From NCBI GenBank assembly GCA_014323545.1, contig CP058647.1, positions 3,078,001-3,142,000 of the forward strand: 64,000 nt of DNA, in the 5' to 3' direction. The first letter of the stretch is position 1; the number at the start of each line of letters is the position of its first letter. Shown piece by piece: positions 15,601 through 21,574 of the stretch. The position numbers were made by a program, and so were the translations under genes. The notes under the pieces were generated by a model, which worked only from the letters and a program-made list of their open reading frames with translations, did not search any database and had not been told where the DNA came from. Source of the stretch: Hyphobacterium sp. CCMP332 (GTDB taxonomy: Bacteria > Bacteroidota > Bacteroidia > Cytophagales > CCMP332).

Positions 15601-16314
15601 ATGTCATCAGTTTCGGTATGCCTCAGCACAGACTTAATTGCGCATCATGGCGATATTAGTGAAAAACAAGTAGTTATAATTGATATTCTAAGAGCTACTT
15701 CTTGTATGCTTAGTGCTTTTATGGAGGGTGCAGAGCATATTAAAGCATTTGATGATCTTGATAAATGCAGGATTATGAAATCAGAGGGGTATTTAATTGC
15801 CGGAGAAAGGGAGGGAAAAAAAGTTGAAGACTTCGATTTAGGTAATTCTCCTTATGATTATATAGATTTTGGGGTAAAGGGTAAGAAAATAGCGATGACT
15901 ACTACCAATGGCACCAAAGCACTTATAAAATCTTCGTCTTCTAAAAATATTTATATAGGGTCTTTTATAAATGCTCAAGCAGTTGCCGATAAATTAAAAA
16001 ATGGAAATTCCGAAGTACTTTTATTTTGTGCTGGATGGAAAGGACGGCCAAATTCGGAAGACTCGCTTTTTGCCGGGATGATAATTTCGCACCTAATTGA
16101 ATCCAATTTTGGATTAGATGGGGATGAAGCGCTGATGTGCTTTGATTTCTACAAAAAGAATGAAAATAACATCTATAATGTCATAAAAAATTCAGCTCAT
16201 GCCAAACGCCTTGCTAAGCACACAGATATTCAAAAAGATCTTGAATATTGTTCTCAAATTAATAAAAGCAGACTTGTACCCGTTTTTACAAATAATGAAA
16301 TAAGACCGGCTTAA
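15601..16314 (+). CDS. comB: 2-phosphosulfolactate phosphatase family protein (ComB)
   Basis: The ComB family dephosphorylates 2-phosphosulfolactate, a step in coenzyme M synthesis in archaea; in bacteria it likely produces sulfolactate or acts on a related substrate. The motifs are DILRATSCMLSAF, AGEREGKKVEDFDLGNSP, MTTTNGTKAL and CAGWKGRPNSEDSLFAG. I chose the ATG at 15601, one base after the gcvT stop, over an in-frame ATG at 15577 inside gcvT. No other coenzyme M or sulfolactate gene is visible nearby, so the physiological role is uncertain. Its stop shares TTAA with the converging gene's stop. Confidence 0.88.
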   Translation: MSSVSVCLSTDLIAHHGDISEKQVVIIDILRATSCMLSAFMEGAEHIKAFDDLDKCRIMKSEGYLIAGEREGKKVEDFDLGNSPYDYIDFGVKGKKIAMTTTNGTKALIKSSSSKNIYIGSFINAQAVADKLKNGNSEVLLFCAGWKGRPNSEDSLFAGMIISHLIESNFGLDGDEALMCFDFYKKNENNIYNVIKNSAHAKRLAKHTDIQKDLEYCSQINKSRLVPVFTNNEIRPA

Positions 16315-16820
16315 TTTTTTGAATTGCTTTCTGTTTCCGCGGGTTTCTGATTTCCTTTTAATGCCTGGTTCATTAAATATTTCTCAGTCAGAGTTTCGAT
16401 GGGTTTTAGTAATAGAGCTATCAAACCTTTAAATAATAATCCAAGCCAAATATTATCCCCGATCTGGGCTTCTATTTGAGGTTCCAAAACACCTTCTGAA
16501 ATTAAGAATAGAGCTACTGCAACCAAAAGCACAATAGTAGTTGCTTTTCGTCCAACTCTGGCCTTAGTGAGCTCGTCTATTGTATTTTGAAGCTCTACAT
16601 TTTTATCCTGAAGTTTACCATTTAGATTGTTAAGCTTATTCTGAAGTCTGTCGCTGACTTTAGTAATGAGCATGCCCTGATCCAGAAGATCTTCATAGTA
16701 GTTTTTAATCTGAAGAAGTTCCTCCTTATATTCATCCTTAGAAACACCATCCTTTTCTAGAAATTCCTGAATGTGTTCTAATATGGCAGTTTCTTTTTCG
16801 AAAACATGCCTTTTTGCCAT
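16311..16820 (-). CDS. Coiled-coil membrane protein ending a SiaABC-like cluster (candidate output)
   Basis: I recognise no named family. Residues about 1-90 are charged and helical with strong heptad character (DRLQNKLNNLNGKLQDKNVE), then two hydrophobic segments follow at about 93-112 (TTIVLLVAVALFLISEG) and 123-143 (IWLGLLFKGLIALLLKPIE), leaving a short polar tail. So the coiled coil is cytoplasmic and membrane-tethered. It begins three bases after the siaC-like stop and is the last gene of the unit. In Pseudomonas aeruginosa the last gene of siaABCD encodes the diguanylate cyclase SiaD, which SiaC binds. No GGDEF domain exists here. I infer that this protein may be the partner of the SiaC-like protein. 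Confidence 0.75.
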   Translation of the reverse strand: MAKRHVFEKETAILEHIQEFLEKDGVSKDEYKEELLQIKNYYEDLLDQGMLITKVSDRLQNKLNNLNGKLQDKNVELQNTIDELTKARVGRKATTIVLLVAVALFLISEGVLEPQIEAQIGDNIWLGLLFKGLIALLLKPIETLTEKYLMNQALKGNQKPAETESNSKN

Positions 16821-16823
16821 AAA

Positions 16824-17210
16824 TTATTCCTCTTCTAGTTCAATAATCTCAAATGGGACATCTAATAGATCGCTGTAGTCTTCACCAGCTTCTTGCATAT
16901 CCTCGTCTTCTTCTTCGTAATACCAATTGATACTCACGTTTAATCCATCCTTAAACAAAGCATTGACTTTTTTGAAAATATCAAGAATACATTTTGAAGA
17001 ACTTGTGTTAAAATACTCTAATTGAATTTTCAGAGTAGTTTTCTCAGTCTTTGAATTACTACCGTACTGATCCAACCATTCCAGCAAAGGTCTGTAAAAT
17101 TCTATAGAGTTTTCAGGAGTAGATCTTCCTTTCAAAGCCAATGTACCAGTATCAGCGTTGAAATTTACATCAGGTGTATGATTGCTTCCTTCTATAATTA
17201 AATTATCCAT
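16824..17210 (-). CDS. siaC: SiaC-family regulatory phosphoprotein (DUF1987)
   Basis: This 128-residue protein matches the SiaC/DUF1987 family: an N-terminal beta region with TPDVNFNADTGTLALKGRS and PENSIEFYRPLLEWLDQY, then the LEYFNTSSSKCILDIF segment. In P. aeruginosa SiaC is phosphorylated on a threonine by SiaB and dephosphorylated by SiaA, and only the unphosphorylated form binds and activates SiaD. The Thr/Ser run in YFNTSSSK is where I expect the phosphosite. The C-terminus is extended and very acidic (EEEDEDMQEAGEDYSD). It lies between the kinase-like gene and the coiled-coil membrane protein with gaps of 12 and 3 bases. Confidence 0.87.
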   Translation of the reverse strand: MDNLIIEGSNHTPDVNFNADTGTLALKGRSTPENSIEFYRPLLEWLDQYGSNSKTEKTTLKIQLEYFNTSSSKCILDIFKKVNALFKDGLNVSINWYYEEEDEDMQEAGEDYSDLLDVPFEIIELEEE

Positions 17211-17222
17211 TTCTAAATTCTT

Positions 17223-17789
17223 TTATGCTTTCGGGATATTTATCTGAAAACTGAAAAATGAGTATTTGTCGTTGATTTCTTTAAACTTGTAATTCAATTT
17301 TTGTCCGGATTTTCTTGCTATATCAATAAATCCAAGACCTCCTCCTCCTTTTTCTGAGAATTTCTCATTGTCGAGTATCCTCTTATAAAGAGCGCGCAGT
17401 TCATCTTTTGTTGTAGAATTGATTTCATCCAACCAACCTTTTAATCCATTTACATTTTCTCCGGTAATATAGTTTCCGGTTGCGACGTGATAAGCGTCAT
17501 CATCGCTGAAAATAATGAGAATTGCACTTTTACGAAGGTAATCATGCTCATCCTTGTTAGGATCGGGTTGTGAATCACTAAAATCAATATGATGACAAAG
17601 ATTTTGCAAACATTCTACCAGAACGTTGTAAACCTTCTTTTTAGTTTTTCTACTATCTTCTAATTGCTCCAAACGACCTTCCATAATTTTCAAAATGGAA
17701 TCAATCAGGTCGAATGTCACTTCACCTTTGAATGTTAGCATGATGTTGTTATCATGCATTCTCTGGTATAAAGCGTAAAGATCGATCAT
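17223..17789 (-). CDS. siaB: SiaB-family protein kinase (DUF6272, GHKL-like)
   Basis: The 188-residue protein resembles SiaB, an atypical GHKL-fold kinase that phosphorylates SiaC. Visible parts are the N-terminal LMLTFKGEVTFDLI-like strand region (IMLTFKGEVTFDLI), an N-box-like helix VYNVLVECLQNLCHHID, and a glycine-rich GGGGLGFIDIARKSG that corresponds to the ATP-lid/G-box area. No receiver or sensor domain is attached, so input must come from partners, presumably the phosphatase encoded upstream. The 96-base gap before it is the largest inside the cluster and could hold a secondary promoter. Confidence 0.85.
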   Translation of the reverse strand: MIDLYALYQRMHDNNIMLTFKGEVTFDLIDSILKIMEGRLEQLEDSRKTKKKVYNVLVECLQNLCHHIDFSDSQPDPNKDEHDYLRKSAILIIFSDDDAYHVATGNYITGENVNGLKGWLDEINSTTKDELRALYKRILDNEKFSEKGGGGLGFIDIARKSGQKLNYKFKEINDKYSFFSFQINIPKA

Positions 17790-17885
17790 CGGTTAAATAC
17801 GATTTTATGAGTACTCAGAACCACTACTAAACTGTGTACCTACACATATTAAGGCTCCAATATAATTTAATTTTTTCAATTTAAA

Positions 17886-19706
17886 TCAAGCTGGTATACG
17901 AATACCAATTACCAGAATATCATCTAATTGTTCCTGGTTCGTGTCGCTCATCCATTTTTCTATGGTTTCATCAAGGATTTTCCTTTGTTCTTCCATGTCT
18001 TTTTTATGGATATCCAATAAAAGATTTCTAAATCTTCTATACATAAATTTCTTCCCTTTAGGCCCGCCAAACTGATCGGCATAACCGTCTGAAAAGATAT
18101 AATAAACATCACCGGATTTTACATCTAACCTGTGATTGGTAAATTCTTCTTTTTCTTCTTGCAGGATATGAATTCCAATAGGAAATTTATTTCCCTTTAC
18201 TATTTCAAGCTCATTGTTTCTGATTCTATACAAAGGGTTAAAGGCCCCTGCAAAATCTAATCTATTCTTTTTTAAATCAAATGAACACAAAGCCAAATCC
18301 ATTCCGTCTTTGGCGGTGGTTCCATCATGGGTTTGCCTCAATGTACTTGTTACAGATTCATTAAGCTGATCTAGTACCATTGCAGCATTCTCACCTTTTG
18401 TAACGTTAACTGCCATATTAAGGTTATTATAACCTACAATAGACATAAATGCACCCGGTACCCCATGACCTGTACAATCAACGGCAGCGATCATAATTTT
18501 ATCTTGAAATGCATCCATCCAATAAAAGTCACCGGAAACAATATCCTTGGGTTTGTAAAGAATAAATGATTCTTTCAAGTGCTTCCTCATAAGGGTGGAA
18601 GGAGGGAGGATTGACTGTTGTATCCTTTTAGCATAGTGAATACTGTCTGTAACTTTTACATAAAGTTCTTCCAGTTTTAAATTTTTGGCTTCAATTTCTT
18701 TAGACTGGCTTTCTATTTCTTCTTTTTGCTTTACGACTTCCTCAGTACGATCTTTAACTTTTTCTTCAAGGTGTTCCTTGAGTTCGTATAGTTCATCTCT
18801 CATCTGCAGCAATGCATGTCCGAGAGTATCTTTATCACTTAAAGGCTTGTACGGTGCATGGAAATTACCAATACCCACTTGTCTTGAAAATTCAACGGTT
18901 TCTTTCAAACCATCCACCAGTTGGTTCATTGCAACACACATTTCACCGATTTCATCATCTCTGGGTGGAATTTTCTCCTGAGGCAAAATACCCTTTCCCA
19001 GAGAATTAAGCATGTTTTTTAGTGTGTGGACCGGGGCTACTATAGAGCGCACAGTGAAAATGGCCACAAATATTCCAATTATAATAAGACCGATTCCGGT
19101 TGATGATATAATGAAATTCAAAAACTGGAAACTTTCCAACATATCCTTACTTACTTCTTCTGTCTGTACAAGCTGGCGCATTGAAAGCTCCTCAACCAAA
19201 TCTAATACCACAGTTGTCTGAGTTTCAATCATACCGTCATTTACTATCTCCTCGGCCATGAATTTGGTAAGCCCATCTTCATAATCGGCAAAGGTTTTGA
19301 GCATGTTCATCACTTGTTCATGCGAAAGAAACAATTGATCGATCATTTTAAAAAGTTCATCCAATTGTTGCTGTTCTTGCTCATCCCAGTTTTCAGAAAG
19401 TGTTTTTAACTCTGTCCTTAATTCCTGGTAATCTTCATAAATAAGTTTTGGAAGTAATTTTTTACTACTCTGATTTTGTTTTTGTTGAGATAACCAGTTT
19501 GTGATTAGCAATTTAGATCGAACGATCATCAGATTCAAAGCTTCCAGCTTATCAACCGAAGGGTTGTAAACTTCTGTGATCTCTTTATTAATGCTGGAAC
19601 TCTCGGTTACAGTTTTAAAGGTTAATATAAAATTGAGTAGCGATAAAAAGATAAGAATAGCAAAACCTAGTCCAATCCTCGTACCTACCGTAAACCTTAT
19701 TCTCAT
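17886..19706 (-). CDS. siaA: SiaA-like membrane PP2C/SpoIIE phosphatase with HAMP domain
   Basis: This inner-membrane receptor phosphatase has TM1 at about residues 7-28, a helical periplasmic sensor region (about 30-195) rich in glutamine and leucine, TM2 (VRSIVAPVH precedes the HAMP linker), a HAMP domain, a coiled coil (KQKEEIESQSKEIEAKNLKL) and a C-terminal SpoIIE/PP2C domain. The metal-binding motifs DIVSGDFYW and DCTGHGVPGAFMS and the later FSDGYADQFGG are intact, so it should be active. I start at the ATG at 19706 (RIRFTVGTRIGLGF), 42 bases inside the longest frame. By analogy it dephosphorylates the SiaC-like protein in response to a periplasmic cue. Confidence 0.85.
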   Translation of the reverse strand: MRIRFTVGTRIGLGFAILIFLSLLNFILTFKTVTESSSINKEITEVYNPSVDKLEALNLMIVRSKLLITNWLSQQKQNQSSKKLLPKLIYEDYQELRTELKTLSENWDEQEQQQLDELFKMIDQLFLSHEQVMNMLKTFADYEDGLTKFMAEEIVNDGMIETQTTVVLDLVEELSMRQLVQTEEVSKDMLESFQFLNFIISSTGIGLIIIGIFVAIFTVRSIVAPVHTLKNMLNSLGKGILPQEKIPPRDDEIGEMCVAMNQLVDGLKETVEFSRQVGIGNFHAPYKPLSDKDTLGHALLQMRDELYELKEHLEEKVKDRTEEVVKQKEEIESQSKEIEAKNLKLEELYVKVTDSIHYAKRIQQSILPPSTLMRKHLKESFILYKPKDIVSGDFYWMDAFQDKIMIAAVDCTGHGVPGAFMSIVGYNNLNMAVNVTKGENAAMVLDQLNESVTSTLRQTHDGTTAKDGMDLALCSFDLKKNRLDFAGAFNPLYRIRNNELEIVKGNKFPIGIHILQEEKEEFTNHRLDVKSGDVYYIFSDGYADQFGGPKGKKFMYRRFRNLLLDIHKKDMEEQRKILDETIEKWMSDTNQEQLDDILVIGIRIPA

Positions 19707-19790: not shown

Positions 19791-20975
19791 TTATAAAGTT
19801 TTCAGAAGGTCTCTGTAATATCTGGCCTTTTCAGGATTGTTAAGTGCTGTATAGATATTGTCGAGGGCGATTATAGTGTCTTTTCTTTTTGGATTTAATT
19901 CAAAAGATTTTTTCATAAAAGGAAGGGCCTCTTGAAATAATTTGGTCACTTTATCCTGAACTTCAAAAATTGTGAGAATATCAGCATCCGGATCCAGATC
20001 ATTGGCCATGGTTACCCCTCTGTTGTAGTATAGCAGTCCAAGATTATAATTAGCCAAAATAGCATCAGGTTTTAATTCAAGAGCTTTTTTATAGTATTCT
20101 TTGGCTTTATCTATGTAAATATCATAATTAGGTTCCCCAACAAATTTTTCCGCATAACTCTCATACTGAATGGCCAGTAGTATTAAATAGTCAACATTCT
20201 GCGGGTCGAGCTTTATTGCTTTATGAAGCACATGCTCTCTTTCCGTAATATCACCGGCTTCCTGTAAATATTTCAAATGCAATTCCACCAATTCCTTTCT
20301 TGTTGGATGTCTTTCATTTCCTTCATTCAAAATTGCAAAGGCAGATTCTTTATCATTTAATGCCCAGTAGGTTTTAGCAAGATAGAAATACAACTGATAA
20401 GTGTTTAAACCACGTGCTTTTGCCTTTAAAAGGAATTTTTTAGCGTTGCCGAAATCAGTATTACTAAATGCAGCATAACCTGTGAGGAAGATAGCATTGG
20501 CGTCAATATCTGATGGATTCACTTCTTCCATTATATCCAGGTACAAATTGAAAAGCTTATACGCATCCCTGAATTGCTCTGCCTGAAATTTAACAACACC
20601 GTCATTATAATAACGCTTCGCTAACAAATCGTATATTTTTTCGCATTCTTTTGCCCATTCTTTATCTGCTGTTTTATCCAAGTCAATGCATTCAGAGCAG
20701 GAATTGGCTACCGCAGTTCTATATTGAGAGAATGGGTTATCATTATCTTTTTGCTTGAAATACTCATTGTATATGTAAGCTCTGAAATACCATGTATCTG
20801 CTTGTTTTGAGGTCACTTCATTTATTATGGCTACATCAATAGCTTGTCTTGCTTCTTCCAACTTACCTTCCTGTAAATAATTCACAGCCTCTGCTTTTTT
20901 CAAAGGTTGAGCAGTAAGGTTGCTTAGAGCAATCAGAACAAAAACGAGCGATATGTAAAATGCCCTTTTCATCAT
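19791..20975 (-). CDS. Exported TPR-repeat protein
   Basis: A signal peptide (MMKRAFYISLVFVLIALSNLTA, about 22 residues) leads a 370-residue mature protein made of tetratricopeptide repeats, for example YYNDGVVKFQAEQFRDAYKL, AKEYYKKALELKPDAILANY and AKKFLLKAKARG. TPR arrays bind other proteins, here in the periplasm or at the cell surface. The start overlaps the YfiR-like gene by four bases and the stop is about 85 bases before the chosen start of the phosphatase. The context suggests that it works with the YfiR-like protein as the extracytoplasmic arm of the Sia-type module, which is inference. Confidence 0.82.
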   Translation of the reverse strand: MMKRAFYISLVFVLIALSNLTAQPLKKAEAVNYLQEGKLEEARQAIDVAIINEVTSKQADTWYFRAYIYNEYFKQKDNDNPFSQYRTAVANSCSECIDLDKTADKEWAKECEKIYDLLAKRYYNDGVVKFQAEQFRDAYKLFNLYLDIMEEVNPSDIDANAIFLTGYAAFSNTDFGNAKKFLLKAKARGLNTYQLYFYLAKTYWALNDKESAFAILNEGNERHPTRKELVELHLKYLQEAGDITEREHVLHKAIKLDPQNVDYLILLAIQYESYAEKFVGEPNYDIYIDKAKEYYKKALELKPDAILANYNLGLLYYNRGVTMANDLDPDADILTIFEVQDKVTKLFQEALPFMKKSFELNPKRKDTIIALDNIYTALNNPEKARYYRDLLKTL

Positions 20976-21574
20976 TCAATCAATATTCCAAGGTCAGAAA
21001 GTACTGAGCTAACCTGAAGCGAATACGACTCTGCTGTTTTCTTATTTATTTCAAATTTTATTTTGTTATTTCTTACAACGAAATTAATTATGGCACCCTG
21101 CCGGGCCAAACCTTCTCCTTCGGTAATTATAAGTGTGCTTTTTCCCTGTAATTTAGATATAACAGAATTCAGGACATTGCTCTTATCATCAGGGATATAA
21201 AGAATATGACATTTCTCAATTTTAGAAACACTATTGAATTTCTTAATTGCAATTTTTTGACCCTCTACATCGCCGTACCTATCTTTGAGGTCGTTGAGAT
21301 AAGATTCAAGAGGAGAATCCCCTAAAAGTCCTATAACGAACTCTCCGCTGTTATATGAAGATGGCCATTCAATATACTTTGTAAATGCCCAAATAAATGT
21401 TTTCTTGAATTGAAGATTCGGATCATCTGCCGGAAGTGTAAACTTTAGGTCAAAGCTCGACAGGGTGACAAAAAGCAGAAGCAATGAAACGATTCTGTTT
21501 CTCACGAAGTAATTAATTGATGCGATTTGGTTGCTTCTGTGTTTAATATGCCCTTTTTGGTAAGGGGTTATCAA
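20972..21574 (-). CDS. YfiR/HmsC-family (DUF4154) periplasmic protein
   Basis: The pattern of this 200-residue protein fits the YfiR family: FIWAFTKYIEWPSSYNSGEFVIGLLGDSPL near the start (here in pieces FIWAFTKYIEWP and FVIGLLGDSP), KKCHILYIPD-like KCHILYIPDD, STLIITEGEGLARQGAIINF and KIKFEINKKTAE. In Pseudomonas YfiR is a periplasmic repressor of the diguanylate cyclase YfiN. No YfiN is present here. The ATG gives about 25 residues before the hydrophobic signal (IVSLLLLFVTLSS); a GTG at 21503-21505 would give a tidier signal peptide (RNRIVSLLLLFV). It is the first gene of the six-gene cluster. Confidence 0.84.
   Translation of the reverse strand: MITPYQKGHIKHRSNQIASINYFVRNRIVSLLLLFVTLSSFDLKFTLPADDPNLQFKKTFIWAFTKYIEWPSSYNSGEFVIGLLGDSPLESYLNDLKDRYGDVEGQKIAIKKFNSVSKIEKCHILYIPDDKSNVLNSVISKLQGKSTLIITEGEGLARQGAIINFVVRNNKIKFEINKKTAESYSLQVSSVLSDLGILIE

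What the first reader, a model, noticed from the sequence alone, without database searches (positions are those of the whole stretch)
16311..19706. SiaABC-type phospho-switch with a coiled-coil membrane protein in place of diguanylate cyclase SiaD
The sequence shows a PP2C/HAMP phosphatase, a SiaB-like GHKL kinase and a SiaC/DUF1987 phosphoprotein in the order SiaA-SiaB-SiaC, then a 169-residue protein with an N-terminal coiled coil and two TM helices, three bases after siaC. In P. aeruginosa dephospho-SiaC binds and activates the cyclase SiaD. No GGDEF, EAL or PilZ gene occurs in this window. Inference: the coiled-coil membrane protein is the SiaC target, so the switch would drive an output other than c-di-GMP. 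This may be an undescribed branch of the Sia system.
Basis: partly seen in the sequence, partly recalled or inferred. Interest (0 to 1): 0.78.

Follow-up and report, generated by a model that had tools for sequence, protein, structure and literature searches.

The report
SiaC switch wired to membrane protein
A bacterial on/off protein switch that in Pseudomonas controls production of the messenger c-di-GMP is here coupled, through the same docking motif, to an undescribed two-helix membrane module in a genome in which no c-di-GMP genes were found, which suggests that the switch is a general adaptor with exchangeable outputs.

Summary
In detail: SiaA (PP2C), SiaB (GHKL kinase), SiaC and a 169-aa protein (ORF4) lie in that order on the minus strand. 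The residues that matter in Pseudomonas (phospho-Thr of SiaC, catalytic Glu of SiaB, acidic residues of SiaA) are kept. The genome has one SiaC and no GGDEF, EAL or PilZ match. ORF4's N-terminus belongs to a docking-stalk family that lies next to siaC across Bacteroidota, fused to GGDEF, histidine kinase, class III cyclase or PP2C domains, or alone; a family profile picks out the SiaC-binding stalk of P. aeruginosa SiaD among all PDB sequences. ORF4 keeps Ser/Asp/Gln at the SiaD positions that contact SiaC. ORF4 genes lie directly behind siaC in 40 of 50 loci; one relative is a natural SiaC-stalk-2TM fusion. The C-terminal two-helix module is unannotated and recurs at the C-terminus of REC-PAS, TPR and propeller sensor proteins, as an output domain would. 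So the fourth protein is very probably the SiaC target, and the output very probably not c-di-GMP. What the membrane module does is unknown. Binding was not shown directly; the AlphaFold run could not test it. New variant of a known kind.

The parts
16311..16820 (-). ORF4, 169 aa: SiaC-docking stalk + two-helix membrane module (proposed SiaC target)
16596..16820 (-). docking stalk domain of ORF4 (residues 1-75), shared with GGDEF, HK, cyclase and PP2C proteins next to siaC elsewhere
16629..16679 (-). SiaC-docking motif, residues 48-64 (QGMLITKVSDRLQNKLN); S56, D57, Q60 align with SiaD S82, D83, Q86
16347..16571 (-). two-helix membrane module (TMM), residues 84-158; E109/K131 covarying charged pair
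16824..17210 (-). SiaC, 128 aa, phospho-acceptor Thr69 (codon 17004-17006) in NTSS
17223..17789 (-). SiaB family kinase, 188 aa, catalytic Glu59
17886..19706 (-). SiaA-like membrane phosphatase: sensor region, HAMP, SpoIIE/PP2C
19791..20975 (-). exported TPR protein, retained upstream of siaA in 7 related loci
20972..21574 (-). YfiR/HmsC-like (PF13689) probable periplasmic protein, first gene of the inferred operon

Best explanation
This is a SiaABC partner switch whose effector is a membrane protein instead of a diguanylate cyclase. SiaA removes and SiaB adds a phosphate on Thr69 of SiaC. Dephosphorylated SiaC binds the KVSDRLQ motif on the helical stalk of ORF4 in the way SiaC binds SiaD, and so stabilises a parallel stalk dimer. 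Because the stalk continues as one helix into the first transmembrane helix, docking sets the oligomeric state or register of the two-helix membrane module, which is the output. The YfiR-like and TPR proteins upstream probably feed a periplasmic signal to SiaA. Shown here: gene content, conserved residues, kinship of the stalk with other SiaC-adjacent docking proteins and through them with the SiaD stalk, linkage to siaC, absence of GGDEF. Inferred: binding, its dependence on phosphorylation, the dimer, and that the membrane module is the output. Not known: what the module does (opening a conductance, recruiting or gating another membrane protein).
For: A docking-domain profile (A2, no SiaD in it) hits SiaD (7e6g_A) at E=4e-6, next best 0.042, over both SiaC-binding motifs. 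Stalks of the ORF4 type match stalks fused to GGDEF/HK/cyclase/PP2C by profile-profile comparison over 75 columns, 4.8e-20. Asp57 is invariant and Gln60 19/20 in A2, aligned with SiaD D83 and Q86, which contact the SiaC NTS loop (PMC8457831). Interchange of outputs behind one dock next to siaC. siaC directly upstream in 40/50 ORF4 loci. Natural SiaC-dock-2TM fusion (L044/L172). All 52 dock-bearing genomes of the order have SiaC, against 123/241 overall. No GGDEF/EAL/PilZ in the genome. The module is C-terminal in REC-PAS, TPR, propeller/Y_Y_Y and dock proteins. AF2: one helix 28-120 from stalk into TM1, pLDDT mostly 85-94.
Against: No binding data. A stalk profile made only of ORF4-type sequences does not find SiaD in PDB, so the tie to SiaD runs through the other docking proteins. 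ORF4 shows one clear motif where SiaD has two. Some SiaC contact residues differ (D79 is Lys, R103 is Asp by alignment). The fused SiaC-ORF4 model has pTM 0.51, gives no interface data, and pLDDT dips at the motif. No activity is known for the membrane module, which might be only an anchor. Most of the best-scoring SiaC loci in the order (26 of 30) have no docking gene within 1.5 kb.
Confidence: 0.66

Rival explanations
1. ORF4 binds SiaC, but the two helices only anchor it. ORF4 then holds SiaC at the membrane, near SiaA or as a sink, and the real output is another SiaC target elsewhere in the genome.
For: Stand-alone docking proteins of 77-99 aa without any output follow siaC in three other genomes (L009, L018, L022), so a dock without effector exists. 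SiaA is itself a membrane protein.
Against: A profile search finds only one docking domain in the whole genome, so no second SiaD-like target is visible. The same two-helix module ends sensor proteins that already have a transmembrane segment (propeller/Y_Y_Y and TPR types), where an anchor would be redundant. It has conserved intramembrane E/K and a KP-(I/L)-E motif, more than an anchor needs.
Confidence: 0.22
2. ORF4 acts upstream: the membrane module senses a signal and hands SiaC to, or withholds it from, SiaA and SiaB, so it sets the switch instead of reading it.
For: Two-helix proteins can be sensors (general knowledge); ORF4 is encoded at the end of an operon that already contains a membrane phosphatase.
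Against: The dock occupies the place of effectors (GGDEF, HK, class III cyclase, PP2C) in other genomes, and the module is C-terminal behind recognised input domains (REC, TPR, propeller).
Confidence: 0.07
3. The neighbourhood is accidental: ORF4 is a generic coiled-coil membrane protein and the SDRLQ resemblance is coiled-coil background.
For: Coiled coils give spurious matches; an ORF4-only profile does not find SiaD.
Against: Linkage in 40/50 loci with differing flanks, a natural fusion with SiaC, and SiaD as the only significant hit among 177,635 PDB sequences that include many coiled coils.
Confidence: 0.04

Closest known systems
SiaABCD partner switch of Pseudomonas aeruginosa (PMC8457831, PMC7647112, PMC7278518)
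   Same: Gene order A-B-C-effector, HAMP-PP2C phosphatase, GHKL kinase, NTSS phospho-loop of SiaC, SiaC-docking stalk with (R/K)(I/V)SDR-Q motif on the effector
   Different: Effector has two transmembrane helices in place of GGDEF; one motif instead of two; equivalog cut-offs of SiaA and SiaC not reached; extra YfiR-like and TPR genes; no c-di-GMP genes found in the genome
Other SiaC-adjacent docking proteins in Bacteroidota (L002-L027): dock-GGDEF, dock-HK, dock-class III cyclase, dock-PP2C
   Same: Same N-terminal docking domain, same place behind siaC
   Different: Enzymatic outputs without the membrane module
2TM effector domains of the SLATT type in conflict systems (PMC7159879, listed; resemblance recalled, not tested)
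   Same: Two transmembrane helices as the effector part of a signalling protein
   Different: No SLATT match at E<=0.1 when 16 module sequences were scanned against Pfam; context is sensory signalling, not NTPase/defence genes
YfiBNR system of P. aeruginosa (PMC4655355)
   Same: A YfiR-like periplasmic protein encoded with a HAMP-containing membrane signal protein
   Different: HAMP protein here is a PP2C phosphatase, not a diguanylate cyclase

Membership tests
SiaC family (PF09345) | profile match and phospho-Thr in NTSS loop | tested here: met
   Pfam 5.1e-45; YFNTSSSK aligned to T68. Under the NCBIfam equivalog cut-off (102.7 vs 150 bits), so family member, not strict equivalog
SiaB family kinase (NF038262) | score over curated cut-off, catalytic Glu | tested here: met
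   157 vs 85 bits; Glu aligned in 6kko_A
SiaA phosphatase | HAMP + PP2C with metal-binding Asp residues | tested here: met
   equivalog cut-off not reached (217 vs 700 bits)
SiaD diguanylate cyclase | GGDEF domain | tested here: not met
   none in ORF4, none in the genome
SiaD diguanylate cyclase | SiaC-binding stalk motif | tested here: met
   through docking-family profile A2 to 7e6g_A and hhalign; an ORF4-only profile fails
SiaC-regulated effectors (works like) | direct binding of dephospho-SiaC | not testable with these tools
   AF2 of a read-through SiaC-ORF4 chain gave no interface information
SiaABCD-type operon | effector gene linked to siaC across lineages | tested here: met
   40/50 loci
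MCU-type channel (considered after weak fold hits) | Pfam MCU match and significant fold match | tested here: not met
   no MCU hit; Foldseek E 5.5-7.1

The most novel reading that the evidence does not exclude
SiaC is a general docking adaptor with exchangeable outputs, and one output is an undescribed, Bacteroidota-wide two-helix membrane effector domain with an intramembrane Glu-Lys pair, controlled by SiaC here and by receiver, TPR or propeller domains elsewhere. Neither the SiaC docking domain as a module nor this membrane domain matched a Pfam model, and no account of them was found in the papers searched.
Probability: 0.55. Interest if true: 0.72.

Novelty: new variant of a known kind. 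Interest (0 to 1): 0.62.

Why it matters
SiaC is so far understood only through a diguanylate cyclase, yet it is common in Cytophagales, where GGDEF domains are nearly absent. The docking motif lets the target of many SiaC proteins be read from sequence: histidine kinases, class III (adenylate/guanylate) cyclases, PP2C phosphatases, stand-alone adaptors and a membrane module. It also brings into view a recurrent C-terminal membrane domain of sensor proteins that has no name and no known activity.

Tried and rejected
PDB search with ORF4 alone or with full-length ORF4 alignments: no relevant hit. ORF4-only stalk profile: SiaD not found. Foldseek with the ORF4 model: nothing significant; two weak hits to mitochondrial calcium uniporter complexes (E 5.5, 7.1) reflect a coiled coil plus TM hairpin, and no Pfam MCU match supports them. 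CapC match of the membrane part (0.0024-0.013) is below cut-off and in a single member. AF2 of SiaC and ORF4 read as one chain through the stop codon (a modelling device, not a claim of read-through): both parts fold, relative placement not resolved, coordinates not available for inspection. Search for one conserved partner gene of the membrane module: none found; a TerB-ABC exporter recurs near some Sia loci but its homologue lies about 98 kb away in this genome. Promoter, terminator and tandem-repeat scans of the region gave nothing above chance. Literature: DUF1987 occurs in one held paper only.

Full report
Observation. The residues on which the Pseudomonas mechanism rests are kept: NTSS with the phospho-threonine (Thr69 here) in SiaC, the catalytic glutamate of SiaB and the acidic PP2C residues of SiaA. 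siaC and orf4 are three bases apart; orf4 is the last gene before a convergent gene.

No c-di-GMP genes. The window lies in a single-contig genome of 3.33 Mb, 98.4% complete, with one SiaC, one docking domain and no GGDEF, EAL or PilZ match (the controls ring in other genomes). In 241 genomes of the order (Cytophagales, judged from the named relatives) SiaC is in 123 and GGDEF in 5; only one genome, G487, has both. So most SiaC proteins of this order cannot act through a diguanylate cyclase.

The stalk. The first ~75 residues of ORF4 find, in genomes elsewhere in the phylum, proteins that lie directly behind siaC and continue into different outputs: GGDEF (L003, L006), histidine kinase (L002, L004, L005, L020, L025), class III cyclase (L019, L027), PP2C (L013), or nothing (L009, L018, L022). 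Sixteen of 27 siaC loci sampled across the phylum have such a gene within 1.5 kb. A profile of 20 of these stalks hits exactly one PDB protein significantly, SiaD of P. aeruginosa in its complex with SiaC (7e6g, E=4e-6; next 0.042), on both SiaC-binding motifs; NCBIfam's SiaD model is matched by 8 of the 20 at E<=0.1, best 2.7e-5. The invariant Asp57 and nearly invariant Gln60 align with SiaD D83 and Q86, and Ser56 with S82; in the crystal structure S82 and Q86 hydrogen-bond SiaC T68, D83 and Q86 contact its neighbours N67, S69 and Y65, and phosphorylation of T68 or an NTS-to-AAA mutation blocks binding (PMC8457831). Limits: a profile of ORF4-type stalks alone does not reach SiaD; the link is through the other docking proteins, to which the ORF4-type profile aligns over 75 columns with E=4.8e-20.

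Linkage. Of 50 loci found through the ORF4 alignment, 40 have siaC directly upstream on the same strand, gaps -8 to 147 bases. The search pattern selected for the motif but not for siaC. Flanking genes differ between groups of loci, so this is not only shared synteny. In one genome SiaC, stalk motif and membrane module are one protein (L044 = L172). All 52 genomes of the order with a docking domain have SiaC (Fisher p 8e-19, not corrected for kinship); proteins with the membrane module but no dock also occur in SiaC-free genomes (G309, G362, G400). Counter-point: of the 30 best-scoring siaC loci of the order only 4 have a dock next door; many genomes carry several SiaC copies whose targets must lie elsewhere.

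The membrane module. Residues 84-158 form a helical hairpin; AlphaFold shows one helix from residue 28 to 120 and a second from 124 to 157. The module has no Pfam model. It recurs at or near the C-terminus behind receiver-PAS-like proteins (L042, L048, L173), TPR proteins (L171, L179, L182), propeller/Y_Y_Y sensor proteins (L165-L169) and coiled coils, in 18 of 296 genomes of the phylum at the sensitivity used, some only marginally (one hit, L195, is not C-terminal and is probably unrelated). In such architectures the C-terminal place usually belongs to a kinase, phosphatase or DNA-binding output (general knowledge), hence the inference that the hairpin is an output domain. Glu109 and Lys131 in the two membrane helices vary together: E/D with K in 40 of 49 sequences, Q with L/F in the other 9, which on the tree needs only one or two events. 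This hints at an intramembrane pair but does not show one.

Mechanism. By analogy with SiaD, where SiaC binding turns an inactive oligomer into a parallel stalk dimer, docking of dephospho-SiaC would order the ORF4 stalk, which is continuous with TM1, and so set the assembly state of the hairpin. Whether the hairpin conducts ions, gates another protein or recruits one cannot be told. The operon probably includes the upstream TPR and YfiR-like genes (7 other loci keep them), which suggests a periplasmic input to SiaA as in YfiBNR (PMC4655355); this is inference.

Verdict.

Noticed in passing
L165-L169, L171, L173, L175, L179, L182-L194: The two-helix membrane module of ORF4 also ends propeller/Y_Y_Y, TPR and receiver-PAS-like proteins; G299 has ten matches in one genome. 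It deserves its own family model.
   Followed up: partly
L009:1233-1532, L018:1227-1484, L022:1253-1486: Stand-alone SiaC-docking proteins of 77-99 aa directly behind siaC, without any output domain.
   Followed up: no
order survey: SiaC is expanded to as many as 17 scored copies in several genomes of the order (G306, G335, G386, G412, G424, G469); the best-scoring copies are mostly siaB-siaC pairs without an adjacent target.
   Followed up: no
L014-L016 (downstream of siaC), L008:1911-3311, L064:6772-9873: A TerB-ABC-ABC2 exporter recurs beside Sia loci; in the window's genome its homologue lies about 98 kb away (G000:C1:2993741-2996752).
   Followed up: partly
L177:3769-5200: A FIST-domain protein is followed by a coiled coil with the membrane module and no docking motif, in a genome without SiaC.
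   Followed up: no
window 19791-21574: A TPR protein and a YfiR-like protein upstream of siaA are kept with the Sia genes in seven other loci.
   Followed up: yes
L063, L071, L096: MAG records titled Bifidobacterium breve, Thalassovita and Rickettsiales carry Cytophagales-like Sia loci and are probably misnamed or contaminated.
   Followed up: no
L017:1883-3229, L032:1985-2950, L066-L069: Natural fusions within the switch: PP2C-SiaB (L017, L067) and SiaB-SiaC (L032, L033, L066, L068, L069).
   Followed up: no
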